Shown: piece by piece, positions 27,681 through 35,587 of the stretch | Layout: each line of letters opens with the position of its first letter | How positions within the stretch are numbered: position 1 is the first letter of the stretch | From: Flavobacteriales bacterium | GTDB lineage: Bacteria; Bacteroidota; Bacteroidia; NS11-12g; UBA955 | DNA length: 36,452 nucleotides | Direction: 5' to 3' | Assembly (NCBI GenBank): GCA_947463125.1 | Contig: CANHQZ010000020.1 | Location: 1 to 36,452, forward strand | Program-made: the position numbers and the translations under genes | Notes under the pieces: generated by a model | Databases searched by the model: none | Told to the model about the DNA's origin: nothing | Seen by the model: the letters and a program-made list of their open reading frames with translations, nothing else

Positions 27681-28370
27681 TCAGTTTTGCGCCATCAATG
27701 ACAGGCTGAAAAGCCTGGGGAATATACTTTGGATGGATCCGCTGTAATAGCTGTTGGGAACGCGGTTTGCCAGACCATTGTTCAGGCCGTTGCTCATTTT
27801 CAGCTCAATGCTTAGGTCAACAAAATCGAGCTGAAACTCCCATCCTGCTCCGTATTCATAGTAAAATGTGTTTTTCTTCAATGCTACCAGCGGCTTATTT
27901 ACCCCGATAACAACATCTTCATTGCTTTGAAAATCGTGGCTCCAGCGCATCCCGCCCAGCACATAGAAACGCTTGTTGCCGTGCATTTTACTTCTGTATT
28001 TGAGTGTTAGCGGCAAATCGAATGAAATGGTTTCCATTTTGATATCCGGGCCCGGTGTATTTCTCCAGCGGTACTGCAAATCTCTTTGATGCAGCTGCAG
28101 CATGGTAAGCCCCTTCAGCTCCCAGTGTTTCCCGAAACGATATGCTATAGTGCCACCAAAGCCACCACCGGCTTGACCTCCCGGAAAAATCCCGGCTATG
28201 GAATCCTGGCGCTGCCAGAAAACCGGGTCCAGATTCACTTTCATTTTAGCGTAGGTACCTGTGAAGGCGATACCCCAGAAAAAATGTTTCCTGTAAATGC
28301 GGTTGGGATCTGTTTGCGCCTGTGCCTGAAGGCTGATCCAGAAAAGCGCTATGACAATTACTTTTCGCAT
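27681..28370 (-). CDS. porT: PorT-type outer-membrane protein of the type IX secretion system
   Basis: The 229-residue protein has a signal peptide (MRKVIVIALFWISLQAQAQ) and a small beta-barrel of about eight strands, e.g. FFWGIAFTGTYAKMKVNLD, GGTIAYRFGKHWELKGLTML, FYVLGGMRWSHDF and TFYYEYGAGWEFQLDFVDLS. It overlaps ubiE by 13 bp; ubiE-porT is the arrangement known for the T9SS gene porT in Porphyromonas and flavobacteria, so context strengthens the call. PorT is needed for T9SS function but its exact role is unsettled. T9SS cargo genes at 8739 and 31252 show that this genome uses the system. Sequence alone would only say outer-membrane barrel. Confidence 0.82.
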   Translation of the reverse strand: MRKVIVIALFWISLQAQAQTDPNRIYRKHFFWGIAFTGTYAKMKVNLDPVFWQRQDSIAGIFPGGQAGGGFGGTIAYRFGKHWELKGLTMLQLHQRDLQYRWRNTPGPDIKMETISFDLPLTLKYRSKMHGNKRFYVLGGMRWSHDFQSNEDVVIGVNKPLVALKKNTFYYEYGAGWEFQLDFVDLSIELKMSNGLNNGLANRVPNSYYSGSIQSIFPRLFSLSLMAQN

Positions 28371-30668: not shown

Positions 30669-31277
30669 ATGATAGGAATTCTTTGTGGCTCATCCAGAGC
30701 CAACAGCAATACAGCAAGGGTAGGCAAAGCCATCAGGCGTATCCTTGTATCCAAAGGCATAGATGCCACCCTGATAGCCATACCCGATTTTGAAAACTAC
30801 GACATTCCGTTCAGCAACGGCGGATCCCTGAAGCCGGGCGCATTGAGTACTTTCAGCCAGGCTGTGTATGAAAGCATGGCCGGAAGTAAGCTCATTTTTA
30901 TATTGTCTCCGGAATACAACTGGTTTCCTACACCGGAAATCATCAACCTGATTAATCAGTTCGGCAAAAAGGACTTTTCAGACTGCTGGGAGGGAAAAAT
31001 CTTTGCCACCTGCGGCATCAGCAGTGGCAGAGGAGGAAGGATTCCCGCCATTCAAATGGGATATATGCTGAACAAGCTCATCAATTTCATGAATTGTAAC
31101 AGTATTGTTTCTGCCAAAAGCTTTGAAAGTCAGTTTACACCCAAGGCACTGGATAATGAAGGGTACAGTCTTGGAAATGCAGAATACGACGCCGGTCTGG
31201 AGGATTTTGTTCAATACAATCTCAACCTGATGCGGAAAGCGGATATTTTACTCAGCGAACCACTTGAAATCCGCTGA
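30669..31277 (+). CDS. NADPH-dependent FMN reductase family flavoprotein
   Basis: The 202-residue flavodoxin-like protein starts MIGILCGSSRANSNTARVGK, the FMN phosphate-binding loop GSSRxxSNT of this family, and has SPEYNWFPTPEIINLIN, the second flavin-contact loop, at about residues 80-96. A later CGISSGRGGRIP shapes the isoalloxazine site. Such enzymes reduce FMN, quinones or azo compounds with NAD(P)H. The substrate here is unknown. It follows meaB with a 6-bp gap and its last 26 bp overlap the 3' end of the convergent surface-protein gene, leaving no room for a separate terminator. Confidence 0.88.
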   Translation: MIGILCGSSRANSNTARVGKAIRRILVSKGIDATLIAIPDFENYDIPFSNGGSLKPGALSTFSQAVYESMAGSKLIFILSPEYNWFPTPEIINLINQFGKKDFSDCWEGKIFATCGISSGRGGRIPAIQMGYMLNKLINFMNCNSIVSAKSFESQFTPKALDNEGYSLGNAEYDAGLEDFVQYNLNLMRKADILLSEPLEIR

Positions 31278-33720
31278 TACCGGAAGCGGTTTTCAAAAAA
31301 TACATTCCTGGTTTCAGGACGGATACATCCCACTGCATTTGAGAATCCGTAATGGTTTTGCACAGCAGCGTTTTTCCGGCATTATCCGTTATTTCGGCTT
31401 TGCCTTTAGTACCTGCCGGGAACCTCAGGCTCAACTGATCTGAAACCGGATTAGGCCACAGTTTTACTGTATTGGCATGTAGATTTCTGATACCTGCAGA
31501 CGGGTTTTTGGCAAGGACCATTACCATATTGCTGCTGGCTTTCCAGCGGCTGTCAAAATCACCATTGGCCCTGTTATAGAAATACTGACCTATTTTGAGG
31601 TCTGAGGTCAGTTCAATTTTATAGGAAATAAATCCGCTGGCCAGTGCAGGATTGGATTCCAGGGCAGCCAGGTTGGCATTGGGAAATTCCACCACCAGAA
31701 TATTCCCTTTCTCTGTTCTTACAAGGGCATCCGTCGGATACAGATTGGTAATAACCACACGGCTCATGGGCAAATTTGCATCCACTGTATCCAGCATCAC
31801 CAAGCGTTTTACAAAGCTTTTGCTGGTGTTGGTGAATTTTACATGATACGAGAGTTCTCTTACCCTGAAATCCACATCATCACCCTTCAAACTGCTTTTT
31901 GTTACGGCTCCGGTGCCATTTTCCATCAGTTTCAGCTGTAGGGTATCGGTATTATCTTCCTTGAAAGCATCCGCCGAAGTGAATGCCGAACCGGTTTTAA
32001 TACTCACGGAATAGCGATCTGCCGGTTGCGCGTCAGCAGGTACTTTAAACCAGAATGGAATGCTCCGAATCTCTCCGGGTTCAAGGCGGGAAATACTCCA
32101 TACAGCTTCGTTTCCTGCATAATTATCTGGAATACTGTCGGATGAAAAATCCGCTAAACGGACATCATGAATCAAGTGTAGGGTAGAACCGTCTATCACT
32201 GTATTCCCAATGTTTCTGAGAGTTATTGCGGATTTAACCCGATCTCCGGGCTTGACTGAGCCGGCCGTGACAATACCCGTTTTAATTTCAATATCACGCA
32301 CATTGGGTGCCATGAACTGAGAAAGGTTAACCATGCTGTATTCGCCTTTCTTAACAGAACTGGCAAAGTTTCCTGGACAGGAGTTTACCCAGTGTCTGCC
32401 GGCAAAAACCTGGATATTATAATCGTCTTCGGGCAGTGCTGCAGCAAACTTTCCTTTGTTATCGGTAACGGAAAACCACATTTTTCCCGACTTTATGTTG
32501 GTGAAACGAACAGTAACCATACCTATTGGCAGGTCATTGCCATCATTGACGCAGTTCTGGTTTTTATCATAAAACACGATTCCAGCAATATCTCCCGCAT
32601 TGTTTTCAATCTTACAGATACGGCGCAAGCCGGTGTTCTGCTCGGTAAATTCGCCCCAGATAAATGCTTCTGAACCGCGTTGTCCCAGATAGAAAAGCCC
32701 ATTGATGCGGTTTCCGGTAAGGCTAAACTCTCCGTTTTCATAGCGAAGCACAGAACTACCATTTCCATTATACAGAAAATCCCCCCCGATGAGCAGCGTA
32801 TTGCCTGCACCCGCTATGGTGTTAAAGCTTGCCCGAGTGAAGGTATCAAAACGAAGAGCCTGGCTCCAGTTTCCGTTAAACTCCCTGATTTCTACCTGTC
32901 CGGAATGCTGCCCCAGTCCGGCAAGTTTATCGGCAAATACTGCCAATTGCTCCACAGCGCCGTTAAACGGACTTCCGATACCGCCCCAGGTTTGGTTTGA
33001 AGCTGTGTAGTAGGCAATATTTCCGGTATAGGTTCCCGCAAAATTCTGAAAATCGCCCGCGATGTAAAGCCTGTTGCCCAGCACCTGCAACGCTTTGATA
33101 GCGCCATCTGAACCCTGGGTCGTATTTGAACTGCCCAGAAAACCCCATTGTCCGGTAGTACCGTCGTATATGGCAATGTTATTAACCAGTTTGCCATTAA
33201 TTACATCGAGAAACTTTCCGGCAACGACCAGTTTGTCATCAAAAACGGTCATGGACATAATACCGTCATTCTTGCTTTTCACAACGGAATTATCTGTTAT
33301 CCAACGGCTGCCGTCCCACTTGAATAGATGCCTGACGGCTATGTCGGCATCCCGGGAAGCTCCTGATATAAAACCACCCACATAAAAAGTATCGCGGTAC
33401 AGAACAACACAGTTGAACTTGTAATCAGCATTTATGGATTTTACAGCATCCGGCTTTGCCAGCCCGGGATAATATGACCAATAAACACCGTTCCAGTGTG
33501 CAAGCACACAATCGGAAGTATCCTGGGTGGACTCATCACTGAAAAGGGCAAGATAATCCTGTCCGGAAGCATAAGCCGTAAGCACCTTGCTGGGCAATCC
33601 ATTTCCCAGGGGCTCAAGCACCTGAGAATGAACCTTCACGCAGCAAAGCATTGCAACACATAGCAGCCACCCTCTCATAACCGGCAATTTAATAAAACAG
33701 AAGGAATTTTTCGTCATCAT
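31252..33720 (-). CDS. Large T9SS-sorted cell-surface protein
   Basis: The 822-residue protein has a signal peptide (MRGWLLCVAMLCCVKVHSQ; an ATG at 33678 is also possible as start), then a propeller-like region of repeated strands (about 30-350; e.g. KLVVAGKFLDVINGKLVNNI, RLYIAGDFQNFAGTYTGNIA). An SdrD B-like/carboxypeptidase-regulatory fold follows (AGIVFYDKNQNCVNDGNDLP, about 365-430), then DUF11-like strands (YHVKFTNTSKSFVKRLVMLD). A T9SS type A sorting domain ends it (KLWPNPVSDQLSLRF ... MYFLKTAS). It probably serves as adhesin or surface layer component. It starts at the base after the anti-sigma stop, so it belongs to the sigma-factor operon. Its ligand is unknown. Confidence 0.88.
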   Translation of the reverse strand: MMTKNSFCFIKLPVMRGWLLCVAMLCCVKVHSQVLEPLGNGLPSKVLTAYASGQDYLALFSDESTQDTSDCVLAHWNGVYWSYYPGLAKPDAVKSINADYKFNCVVLYRDTFYVGGFISGASRDADIAVRHLFKWDGSRWITDNSVVKSKNDGIMSMTVFDDKLVVAGKFLDVINGKLVNNIAIYDGTTGQWGFLGSSNTTQGSDGAIKALQVLGNRLYIAGDFQNFAGTYTGNIAYYTASNQTWGGIGSPFNGAVEQLAVFADKLAGLGQHSGQVEIREFNGNWSQALRFDTFTRASFNTIAGAGNTLLIGGDFLYNGNGSSVLRYENGEFSLTGNRINGLFYLGQRGSEAFIWGEFTEQNTGLRRICKIENNAGDIAGIVFYDKNQNCVNDGNDLPIGMVTVRFTNIKSGKMWFSVTDNKGKFAAALPEDDYNIQVFAGRHWVNSCPGNFASSVKKGEYSMVNLSQFMAPNVRDIEIKTGIVTAGSVKPGDRVKSAITLRNIGNTVIDGSTLHLIHDVRLADFSSDSIPDNYAGNEAVWSISRLEPGEIRSIPFWFKVPADAQPADRYSVSIKTGSAFTSADAFKEDNTDTLQLKLMENGTGAVTKSSLKGDDVDFRVRELSYHVKFTNTSKSFVKRLVMLDTVDANLPMSRVVITNLYPTDALVRTEKGNILVVEFPNANLAALESNPALASGFISYKIELTSDLKIGQYFYNRANGDFDSRWKASSNMVMVLAKNPSAGIRNLHANTVKLWPNPVSDQLSLRFPAGTKGKAEITDNAGKTLLCKTITDSQMQWDVSVLKPGMYFLKTASGISGFQVVR

Positions 33721-34998
33721 TTAGTCAATCCTCCATATTATTTGGGTGCCTACACTGAGTGCATGATTCCGAGGCCGGACACTTGCATCAGGGACATATG
33801 CCGGCGTTATCATTCTGGTGCCGCTGAGGGTAGCGCCCCATTCAACATTTCGGCTGATGTGACGAAATGCCCCCATGGAAAAAGCGGCTGACATCTGAAC
33901 TTTCCTGTACCAATCCAAACGCTGGGATGTAAGCAGTAACTGCTGGTAATCCAGCGTGAATCCGCTGACACCACTCACAAAGCCGGTATTGATAAATACA
34001 GCGGGCTTAACCGACCAATGCGGTGTTACCGGGAAATCGGCCATTATGCCCAGTGGCACTTCAATCAGTGAGTTTCGCTGAAAGCCGCTGTAAGAAACAT
34101 TTCCAGTACTACCAAAGTACCCGATTATCGGATAATTGCCGAATTTATCCGGTGTATTTCCGGGCATCAGGGTAACCGGCACTTCATCGGAAAAATTGAA
34201 CTGCTGCTTTGTATTCATCTGCCGGTAATTCAAACCGCCCATAAGCGCGTATCGCTTGTTGAGCCGATAACCCAGCTGCACCGATAAACCGATACTTCCC
34301 ATGGCCTGCTCCCCTTCCTTCATTCGGTTCAGGTAGTTTTTGTGTACATAACGGCTGAAATTCGGATTAACCGCATATTCATTGCCGCTTTGCTGTTGTA
34401 TTATCCCTGCGCTGATCATCCATCTTCCGTCTGGCATATTAAACGCTGCAGGCCTTGGCAGACTCAGCCATACCGGTGCTTTTGCTACCTCAACAGGTGC
34501 AGTTAGCTTGCGCAAGCCAAACGGCTCCGGCAGTAAAAACGAAGATTCGGTGGCTTCTGCTGAGGGTGGCGGTGGTGGTTCAACACATTTTACTGTCGGT
34601 TCGCCCGAGATAGCTTCTGCAGGCATATCTGCCGAATTTCCTTCAGCATACCGGGCATGTAATTTACCGCCATTGTTATTATTCAAAGCCTGCTGTTCAC
34701 CATGCTCAGCAGATGATTTGGAAGTCTCTTTTTGATTATGTTTTAGAGAATCTGTCTTCTCAATATTGTGCTTGGCAACAGATTTTATTTTTTGCGAATC
34801 AGACAATCCTAAACATACAGCAATAATACCAACTGCAATAAAAACGGCAGCTACTGAATACCACAAAACAAGGCGACGCCTGCGGTTTTGGTCCAGCTTA
34901 TCTGCAATTCCATCCCATACCCCTTTAGGCAAAGGCGGCTCAAAGGACTGAAACAATCCCTGAAGCTGTTTGTCGGTATGGTTGTTTTCGTTTTTCAA
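33721..34998 (-). CDS. Anti-sigma-like protein with inner-membrane helix and C-terminal outer-membrane barrel
   Basis: The 425-residue protein has an unusual envelope-spanning plan. Residues 1-42 are a charged cytoplasmic segment (QLQGLFQSFEPPLPKGVWDG) typical of anti-sigma heads. Residues about 43-65 form one transmembrane helix (VLWYSVAAVFIAVGIIAVCL) after an RRRR positive-inside stretch. About 66-185 is a low-complexity linker rich in Lys, Asn, Ser and PPPPP. About 190-425 is a beta-barrel (RWMISAGIIQQQ, MGSIGLSVQLGYRLNKRY, LIEVPLGIMADFPVTPHWSV, NHALSVGTQIIWRI). This matches the dual membrane-spanning anti-sigma (Dma) idea described in Bacteroides. The start is TTG at 34998, overlapping the sigma-factor stop by 4 bp. 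Sigma binding is inferred from operon position and layout. Confidence 0.82.
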   Translation of the reverse strand: MKNENNHTDKQLQGLFQSFEPPLPKGVWDGIADKLDQNRRRRLVLWYSVAAVFIAVGIIAVCLGLSDSQKIKSVAKHNIEKTDSLKHNQKETSKSSAEHGEQQALNNNNGGKLHARYAEGNSADMPAEAISGEPTVKCVEPPPPPSAEATESSFLLPEPFGLRKLTAPVEVAKAPVWLSLPRPAAFNMPDGRWMISAGIIQQQSGNEYAVNPNFSRYVHKNYLNRMKEGEQAMGSIGLSVQLGYRLNKRYALMGGLNYRQMNTKQQFNFSDEVPVTLMPGNTPDKFGNYPIIGYFGSTGNVSYSGFQRNSLIEVPLGIMADFPVTPHWSVKPAVFINTGFVSGVSGFTLDYQQLLLTSQRLDWYRKVQMSAAFSMGAFRHISRNVEWGATLSGTRMITPAYVPDASVRPRNHALSVGTQIIWRID

Positions 34999-35543
34999 CG
35001 TATCTTTTTGTTTTTCATAAGTTCTTTAAGCATCACGCGCCCCCTGCTGAGCAGACTTTTGCTGCCGCCCTCGGAAATGCTCAGCTGCTCGGCAATTTCC
35101 CTGTGGCTCATATTATCAATGGCGTACAGGTTGATTACCAGCCGATACTTTTCCGGCAGGGCTGCAAGGGCAGACAGAACCTCATCCACGGATTCGCTGA
35201 GCGATTCCTGCGCCGACTCGTTTTCTTCCACCTGTTCGGCAAGCGGAATGGTATCCACTTCCACAAACTGAGGTCCGGTACTCCGTTTGCGAAAGCGCGA
35301 GATGGCCAGATTGATGAACAGCCGCGTCATCCAGGCTTCTATGGCACTGTCTCCCTTGTAGGTGCCGATAAACTCAAAGACCTTTACAAAACCATCCTGA
35401 AGCAGATCGTTGGCATCAGCCGGATTGCCGGAGTAACGCAGGCAGTAGCCATACATTTTTTTACCGTAGCGCAGAAACAATGCTTCCTGTGCGCGGCGGT
35501 CTCCTTTTTTGCAACCTTGTATGATGTCTTCATCCGTTAACAA
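34995..35543 (-). CDS. ECF-type RNA polymerase sigma factor
   Basis: The 182-residue protein has region 2 (NPADANDLLQDGFVKVFEFI and YKGDSAIEAWMTRLFINLAI, binding the -10 element and core polymerase), an acidic linker rich in Glu (about 100-122), and region 4 (LPEKYRLVINLYAIDNMSHR then EIAEQLSISEGGSKSLLSRG, a helix-turn-helix for the -35 element). This is the Bacteroidota group that pairs with barrel-bearing anti-sigmas. The frame opens at TTG 35543, just after an in-frame TGA; no ATG is available, so weak initiation is likely. It is first in the three-gene operon with anti-sigma and surface protein. A possible ECF-type promoter lies at 35561-35587. Confidence 0.92.
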   Translation of the reverse strand: MLTDEDIIQGCKKGDRRAQEALFLRYGKKMYGYCLRYSGNPADANDLLQDGFVKVFEFIGTYKGDSAIEAWMTRLFINLAISRFRKRSTGPQFVEVDTIPLAEQVEENESAQESLSESVDEVLSALAALPEKYRLVINLYAIDNMSHREIAEQLSISEGGSKSLLSRGRVMLKELMKNKKIR

Positions 35544-35560: not shown

Positions 35561-35587
35561 GACGCGACTTTAGGTGAATGGTTGCAA
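35561..35587 (-). promoter_or_regulatory. Putative ECF-sigma promoter (autoregulation)
   Basis: On the minus strand TTGCAACC (35587-35580) and CGTC (35564-35561) are 15 bp apart, resembling the AAC / CGTC pattern of ECF promoters. The TTG start of the sigma gene lies 17 bp further on. The assignment rests on pattern memory, so it is tentative. Confidence 0.4.

What the first reader, a model, noticed from the sequence alone, without database searches (positions are those of the whole stretch)
31252..35543. Three-gene operon: ECF sigma, anti-sigma that appears to span both membranes, and a T9SS surface protein
The middle gene joins a cytoplasmic anti-sigma-like head, one inner-membrane helix, a roughly 120-residue linker rich in Pro, Asn, Lys and Ser, and an eight-to-ten-strand outer-membrane barrel in one chain. 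That layout could pass outer-membrane signals directly to the sigma factor without a protease cascade between separate proteins. Dual membrane-spanning anti-sigmas have been described in Bacteroides; here the pair is translationally coupled and directly followed by a large T9SS-exported surface protein. That protein could be the sensor partner, the output, or an adhesin under this control. The three-part arrangement is the best candidate in the window for an under-described system.
Basis: partly seen in the sequence, partly recalled or inferred. Interest (0 to 1): 0.75.

Follow-up and report, generated by a model that had tools for sequence, protein, structure and literature searches.

The report
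T9SS-linked dual-membrane anti-sigma operon
A freshwater Bacteroidota bacterium carries a conserved three-gene switch in which one protein appears to reach from the cytoplasm through both membranes to the cell surface, and it probably controls a gene-regulating sigma factor whose predicted targets are its own operon and a giant secreted surface protein; the switch type is known, but its link to proteins secreted by the type IX system appears undescribed.

Summary
The window has an ECF sigma gene (34995-35543, minus), a 425-aa protein (33721-34998) and an 822-aa T9SS type A cargo (31252-33720) with no gaps between them. AlphaFold2 models the middle protein as an N-terminal helix, a long helix with the inner-membrane span, a disordered tether (66-190) and a confident 8-stranded barrel. 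This layout is already published as the Das/Dma family of Bacteroides, so the middle gene is not a new kind.

What goes further: (1) The trio is kept in 33 of 34 readable loci across two families, and related trios occur outside the order. (2) The sigma gene has a conserved ECF-type promoter, TGCAACC-N14/15-CGTC. (3) In this genome that motif precedes only one other gene, for a 1360-aa GEVED/Ig-like T9SS surface protein. The same site sits before orthologues in seven genera of the family. In the sister family that gene usually lies directly upstream of the sigma operon. (4) The barrel's extracellular loops are more conserved than its strands and co-vary with the third protein's head.

Best reading: a T9SS-coupled variant of Das/Dma. 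The surface protein is the predicted output. The co-encoded propeller protein is the candidate extracellular partner of the barrel (inferred).

The parts
35561..35586 (-). Predicted sigma-dependent promoter: -35 TGCAACC (35580-35586), -10 CGTC (35561-35564)
   Evidence: Aligned upstream regions of relatives; 16 of 17 family-level sigma genes have TGCAACC-N14/15-CGTC and the other has one mismatch, always 16-17 nt before the start codon
34995..35543 (-). ECF sigma factor, 182 aa, TTG start
   Evidence: PF04542, PF08281, TIGR02937; present next to every readable relative of the anti-sigma within the order
33721..34998 (-). Dual-membrane anti-sigma-like protein, 425 aa, TTG start overlapping the sigma stop codon
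   Evidence: AlphaFold2 model, Foldseek and VIA-align against PDB, 33-sequence alignment A1
34870..34998 (-). N-terminal cytoplasmic head (residues 1-43), conserved motif HIDxxLxxxFxxFE...W..I...LD.K.RR
   Evidence: alignment A1 consensus; anti-sigma function inferred from position and the Dma precedent, not shown
34807..34869 (-). Inner-membrane helix (about residues 44-64)
   Evidence: hydrophobic stretch within predicted helix 27-65
34435..34803 (-). Disordered periplasmic tether (about residues 66-188), least conserved part of the protein
   Evidence: pLDDT below 50 over most of it; mean pair identity 0.14 in the family
33724..34422 (-). 8-stranded outer-membrane barrel (residues 193-425)
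   Evidence: NspA/OmpA/OprF-type fold; extracellular loops more conserved than strands and turns (0.45 vs 0.32, p=0.001)
31252..33720 (-). T9SS type A cargo, 822 aa: signal peptide, predicted beta-propeller head, beta-sandwich stalk, DUF7619, C-terminal sorting domain
   Evidence: (mean pLDDT 84.5); orthologue alignment A2
32596..33621 (-). Predicted beta-propeller head of the T9SS cargo (residues 34-375)
   Evidence: AlphaFold2 all-strand fold; weak DUF5122, Rax2 and Kelch propeller hits; designed propeller 8pjt TMt 0.53
31255..31461 (-). Por_Secre_tail / TIGR04183 T9SS sorting domain (residues 754-822)

Best explanation
The locus is an autoregulated Das/Dma-type signalling operon wired to type IX secretion. 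The 425-aa protein sits in both membranes: its cytoplasmic head holds the ECF sigma factor, one helix crosses the inner membrane, a disordered tether of about 120 residues crosses the periplasm, and an 8-stranded barrel sits in the outer membrane with its loops outside. A change at the surface side of the barrel is passed down the same chain and frees the sigma. The freed sigma reads TGCAACC-N14/15-CGTC promoters. Its predicted targets are its own operon and an unlinked gene for a 1360-aa GEVED/PKD/Ig-like T9SS surface protein, which is the output. The third gene's product, a T9SS-delivered propeller protein, is most likely the extracellular partner of the barrel loops, so that the switch reads the state of the T9SS-built cell surface. 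Supported by prediction here: layout, operon, conserved promoter, conserved target site. Inferred: anti-sigma activity, signal direction, binding of the propeller protein to the barrel, and the trigger.
For: Layout: helix, tether, confident 8-strand barrel; NspA/OmpA fold. Published precedent with the same four parts: PMC13088901. Trio kept: sigma before the anti-sigma in all readable loci and the third-gene homologue after it in 33 of 34, with 4-nt or 0-nt junctions common, while flanking genes change between families; homologous trios outside the order in L100, L102, L103, L104. Regulon: strict motif has 4 hits in the own genome, two in front of genes (sigma; 1360-aa T9SS protein) and two inside coding sequence. 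The target site is found before orthologues in all 7 genomes of the genus at 46-47 nt, and in G013, G030, G023, G011, G021, G009, G010 at 29-32 nt, G007 at 94 nt, and G017. The spacer varies between genera, with column identity down to 0.19. Independent linkage: in the sister family the homologous gene of about 1360-1400 aa lies directly upstream of the sigma gene on the same strand (L058, L059, L060; partial copies in L063, L065, L066, L070). Surface partner: loops more conserved than strands; loop divergence tracks the propeller head after controlling for sigma and barrel strands (partial r 0.68, jackknife 0.63-0.76, 0 of 2000 permutations). Precedent for a T9SS cargo acting upstream of an ECF sigma: PorA (PMC7712824).
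Against: No expression, binding or mutant data exist. Sigma/anti-sigma contact and barrel/propeller contact could not be modelled as complexes. The loop-propeller co-variation is weaker within each family (0.55 and 0.47), and in the second group strands do as well as loops. Outside the order the next gene is often a different T9SS cargo (subtilase, CBM, PKD) or no T9SS cargo, which fits an output as well as a partner. G035 has a sigma/anti-sigma pair without the third gene (L068). The motif was defined on sigma promoters and then searched as a fixed pattern, so invariance of the boxes at the target sites is by construction. Several family members show no strict site before their best target homologue (G031, G015, G022).
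Confidence: 0.6

Rival explanations
1. The T9SS propeller protein is only a second output: the sigma makes its own operon and the large surface protein, and the barrel senses something else by itself (lipid, LPS or outer-membrane state), as proposed for vesiculation control by Dma1/Dma2.
For: Dma1/Dma2 act on outer-membrane vesicles without T9SS (PMC13088901). Outside the order the cargo type after the pair varies or is absent. A cargo under an ECF promoter is a normal output.
Against: The same third-gene family stays in place in 33 of 34 loci over two families, and the barrel loops are unusually conserved and co-vary with the propeller head.
Confidence: 0.35
2. The protein is a two-membrane tether or OmpA-like envelope protein that happens to be co-transcribed with the sigma factor and does not regulate it.
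For: No family model above cut-off names it as an anti-sigma.
Against: A conserved cytoplasmic head joined to the barrel is adjacent to an ECF sigma in every readable relative, the layout matches Dma proteins shown genetically to act on their sigma (PMC13088901), and the promoter is conserved as for an autoregulated ECF operon.
Confidence: 0.05
3. The second site is read by another of the genome's ECF sigma factors, so the 1360-aa surface protein is not this system's output.
For: Nine ECF-type genes pass the curated cut-off in the own genome, at least three others with Dma-like or similar partners; ECF promoters overlap in specificity.
Against: The upstream regions of the other ECF genes that were read out do not show the TGCAACC/CGTC pair, the strict pattern finds none of them, and in the sister family the target homologue lies next to this sigma operon.
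Confidence: 0.15

Closest known systems
Das/Dma systems of Bacteroides thetaiotaomicron (Dma1/Das1, Dma2/Das2; Pardue et al. 2024, 2026)
   Same: ECF sigma followed by one chain with cytoplasmic head, one transmembrane helix, long disordered tether and C-terminal outer-membrane barrel; Dma2 is also in a three-gene operon (PMC13088901)
   Different: Here the third gene is a T9SS type A cargo conserved with the pair across two families, and the predicted output is another T9SS surface protein; the reported Dma roles are vesiculation and PUL control, and the passages read do not mention T9SS
PorA-PorXY-SigP pathway of Porphyromonas gingivalis
   Same: A T9SS C-terminal-domain protein acts upstream of an ECF sigma factor (PMC7712824)
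   Different: There a two-component system (PorY/PorX) links the surface to SigP and the targets are T9SS machine genes; here a single anti-sigma-like chain is encoded in the operon and the predicted target is a T9SS cargo
SM6 ECF regulon of Flavobacterium psychrophilum
   Same: ECF-type promoters with a CGT -10 box, including an ECF/anti-sigma pair and T9SS-related genes (PMC9723704)
   Different: SM6 targets include T9SS components (GldN, PorU); no such target was found here, and whether that anti-sigma is of the Dma type was not checked
FecI/FecR/FecA cell-surface signalling
   Same: Outer-membrane event controls an ECF sigma
   Different: No FecR domain and no TonB-dependent transducer in the operon; outer- and inner-membrane parts are one chain

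Membership tests
Dma (dual membrane-spanning anti-sigma) | N-terminal cytoplasmic anti-sigma domain | tested here: inconclusive
   Conserved N-terminal head before the membrane helix; sigma binding not testable with these tools
Dma (dual membrane-spanning anti-sigma) | Single transmembrane helix | tested here: met
   Helix 27-65 with a hydrophobic stretch at about 44-64
Dma (dual membrane-spanning anti-sigma) | Long intrinsically disordered tether | tested here: met
   Residues 66-190 mostly pLDDT below 50
Dma (dual membrane-spanning anti-sigma) | C-terminal beta-barrel | tested here: met
   8 strands, pLDDT above 90; NspA Z 18.3, OmpA Z 17.4
Dma (dual membrane-spanning anti-sigma) | Encoded next to a cognate ECF sigma (Das) | tested here: met
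   4-nt overlap; conserved in all readable relatives
Dma (dual membrane-spanning anti-sigma) | Cognate sigma belongs to group ECF21 | not testable with these tools
   No ECF-group models held; only superfamily TIGR02937 and Pfam sigma region models hit above cut-off
Dma (dual membrane-spanning anti-sigma) | Sequence homology to B. thetaiotaomicron Dma1/Dma2 | not tested
   Those sequences were not at hand; the profile finds Dma-like proteins in 188 of 247 genomes of the class
FecI/FecR/FecA cell-surface signalling | FecR-type anti-sigma plus TonB-dependent transducer | tested here: not met
   No such domain in the three proteins at E<=1
T9SS type A cargo (third gene) | C-terminal sorting domain and N-terminal signal peptide | tested here: met
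   TIGR04183 33.5 bits above cut-off 23; hydrophobic N-terminus ending near Q33, modelled as a helix; no signal-peptide predictor was available

The most novel reading that the evidence does not exclude
The system is a secretion-coupled surface switch: the T9SS-delivered propeller protein is a ligand or cap on the outer-membrane barrel of a single-chain anti-sigma factor, so the cell reads successful T9SS delivery or outside contact directly in the cytoplasm and orders a giant T9SS surface protein. T9SS cargo genes directly after Dma-like pairs in other families (11 co-directional cases among about 30 sampled loci outside the order) would make this a general branch of Dma signalling in Bacteroidota.
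Probability: 0.4. Interest if true: 0.75.

Novelty: new variant of a known kind. Interest (0 to 1): 0.6.

Why it matters
Das/Dma systems are recent and their signals are unknown. Here one comes with a conserved surface candidate partner, a predicted promoter motif and a predicted output, which makes the question 'what does a dual-membrane anti-sigma sense?' directly testable. If the propeller protein is the signal, it would be a single-chain route from T9SS surface delivery to transcription, distinct from the PorXY-SigP cascade.

Tried and rejected
FecI/FecR-type signalling: rejected, no FecR or TonB-receptor domain. Barrel of ten strands: eight are modelled. Large regulon including T9SS machine genes: not supported; the strict motif has only 4 hits in the own genome, fewer than the reversed control pattern (12), and among the extra sites from relaxing to TGCAAC-N15/16-CGTC I saw no sequence shared across the genus, though their neighbourhoods were not read one by one. 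Naming by curated anti-sigma families: no model reaches its cut-off. The genome-contig scan with the single protein gave only four loci, all close relatives in MAGs. The 2024 Dma paper and the ECF re-classification paper were not held. PDB fold matches of the third protein (integrin alpha and others) have low TM-scores and show only a generic propeller-plus-Ig layout. Co-variation inside single families is too weak to settle binding.

Full report
Observation. Three ORFs lie head to tail on the minus strand at the stated coordinates: sigma 34995-35543, 425-aa protein 33721-34998, 822-aa protein 31252-33720. The sigma stop and the next TTG start overlap by 4 nt, and the third ATG follows the anti-sigma stop with no gap. 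The sigma is an ECF type (TIGR02937, PF04542, PF08281). The third protein ends in a T9SS type A sorting domain and carries DUF7619. The window is contig C20 of a 2.3 Mb draft genome. Its closest named relatives are MAGs labelled Bacteroidetes or Flavobacteriales; one is labelled Sphingomonadales, which looks like a misnomer. The freshwater origin is inferred from the isolate names of those MAGs.

Anatomy of the middle protein. AlphaFold2 with 33 homologues gives helix 7-17, helix 27-65, an unstructured stretch to about 190 and an 8-stranded barrel with pLDDT above 90. VIA-align places it with NspA, OprF and OmpA. With the tether on the periplasmic side, the long loops (208-233, 268-300, 346-366, 397-409) face outwards. 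This is inferred topology. A disordered tether of about 120 residues is long enough to cross a periplasm (inference from chain length).

The trio is real and old. In 36 relatives fetched from the family and a sister family, the sigma precedes the anti-sigma wherever readable, and a homologue of the third gene follows in 33 of 34 readable cases. The exception is L068. Neighbours such as MeaB, an FMN reductase and a dehydrogenase are shared only inside the first family, so the trio outlives its surroundings. In the second family the three genes mostly overlap by 4 nt at both junctions. Across the class, the anti-sigma profile finds matches in 188 of 247 genomes. Homologous trios appear in L100, L102, L103 and L104. 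In about 30 sampled loci outside the order, 11 have a T9SS cargo of some kind as the next co-directional gene, against 75 above-cut-off T9SS domains in the whole own genome. These loci were picked from the better-scoring matches and are not a random sample.

Promoter and regulon. Upstream of the sigma gene, relatives keep TGCAACC-N14/15-CGTC, 16-17 nt before a TTG start, in 16 of 17 family members examined; the other has one mismatch. Similar sites (TGCAACC..GTC) stand in the sister family. This has the form of an ECF promoter and suggests autoregulation. In the own genome the strict pattern hits four places: two inside coding sequence, one before the sigma gene and one 46 nt before the gene of a 1360-aa protein. 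That protein has GEVED, PKD and four Ig-like surface domains and a T9SS tail. The same site is present before its orthologue in all seven genomes of the genus and in six further genera (G013; G030/G023/G011; G021/G009; G010; G007; G017), at near-constant distance within groups, while the spacer varies. If hits were random, about 2e-5 per 100-nt window would be expected. Genomes in one genus are not independent, so the number of genera is the better measure. In the sister family the homologous gene lies directly upstream of the sigma operon on the same strand. Two independent lines, motif and gene linkage, therefore tie this surface protein to the sigma factor.

The third gene. Its AlphaFold2 model (mean pLDDT 84.5) is all-strand with a propeller-like head, sandwich domains and the sorting domain. 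In the first family the barrel loops are more conserved than strands and turns (0.45 against 0.32, p=0.001), which is unusual for outer-membrane loops and suggests a conserved outside partner. Loop distances follow propeller distances after removing sigma and strand distances (partial r 0.68; N-terminus -0.09; sorting domain -0.20). Within each family the signal is weaker. This is suggestive only. PorA of P. gingivalis is a precedent for a T9SS-domain protein acting upstream of an ECF sigma (PMC7712824).

Comparison. Dma proteins are defined by an anti-sigma head, a transmembrane helix, a disordered tether and a barrel, with an adjacent ECF21 sigma (PMC13088901). Helix, tether, barrel and an adjacent ECF sigma are met here. 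Sigma binding, ECF21 grouping and homology to the Bacteroides proteins could not be tested. The locus works like Das/Dma and is very probably a member. The T9SS cargo as a fixed third gene and a T9SS surface protein as predicted output were not found in the literature searched. That library is open-access only, and the founding 2024 paper was not held.

Verdict. A good, confirmed observation of a known signalling architecture in a new, T9SS-linked variant, with a testable promoter, target and candidate partner.

Noticed in passing
G000 contig C6, locus L120:5362-6966: A second ECF sigma in the same genome is followed by a 351-aa protein with a similar anti-sigma-like head, but with a PKD domain and a CHU_C T9SS type B sorting domain (PF13585, E=2.9e-13) in place of the barrel, and then by an 1823-aa PKD-rich protein. 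An anti-sigma-like protein that itself carries a T9SS signal domain is unusual.
   Followed up: partly
window 34998, 35543; L036-L071: Sigma and anti-sigma genes both start with TTG in nearly all relatives, and the sigma start lies only 16-17 nt after the predicted -10 box in the first family, so leaders are very short and initiation probably weak.
   Followed up: partly
window 27681-28370: PorT/SprT-like T9SS outer-membrane protein (NF052311, 97.8 bits, below its cut-off of 125), not part of the operon.
   Followed up: no
window 31252-31277: The 3' ends of the FMN-reductase gene (30669-31277, plus) and the T9SS gene (31252-33720, minus) overlap convergently by 26 bp.
   Followed up: no
L127:4206-5550: In G040 the anti-sigma is split into two overlapping ORFs (142 aa with head and linker, 309 aa with barrel); this could be a frameshift, a sequencing error or a real two-piece form.
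   Followed up: no
G000 contigs C13 and C72, loci L196 and L202: Further ECF sigma genes followed by 427-aa and 510-aa proteins that look Dma-like, so this small genome may hold several such switches.
   Followed up: partly
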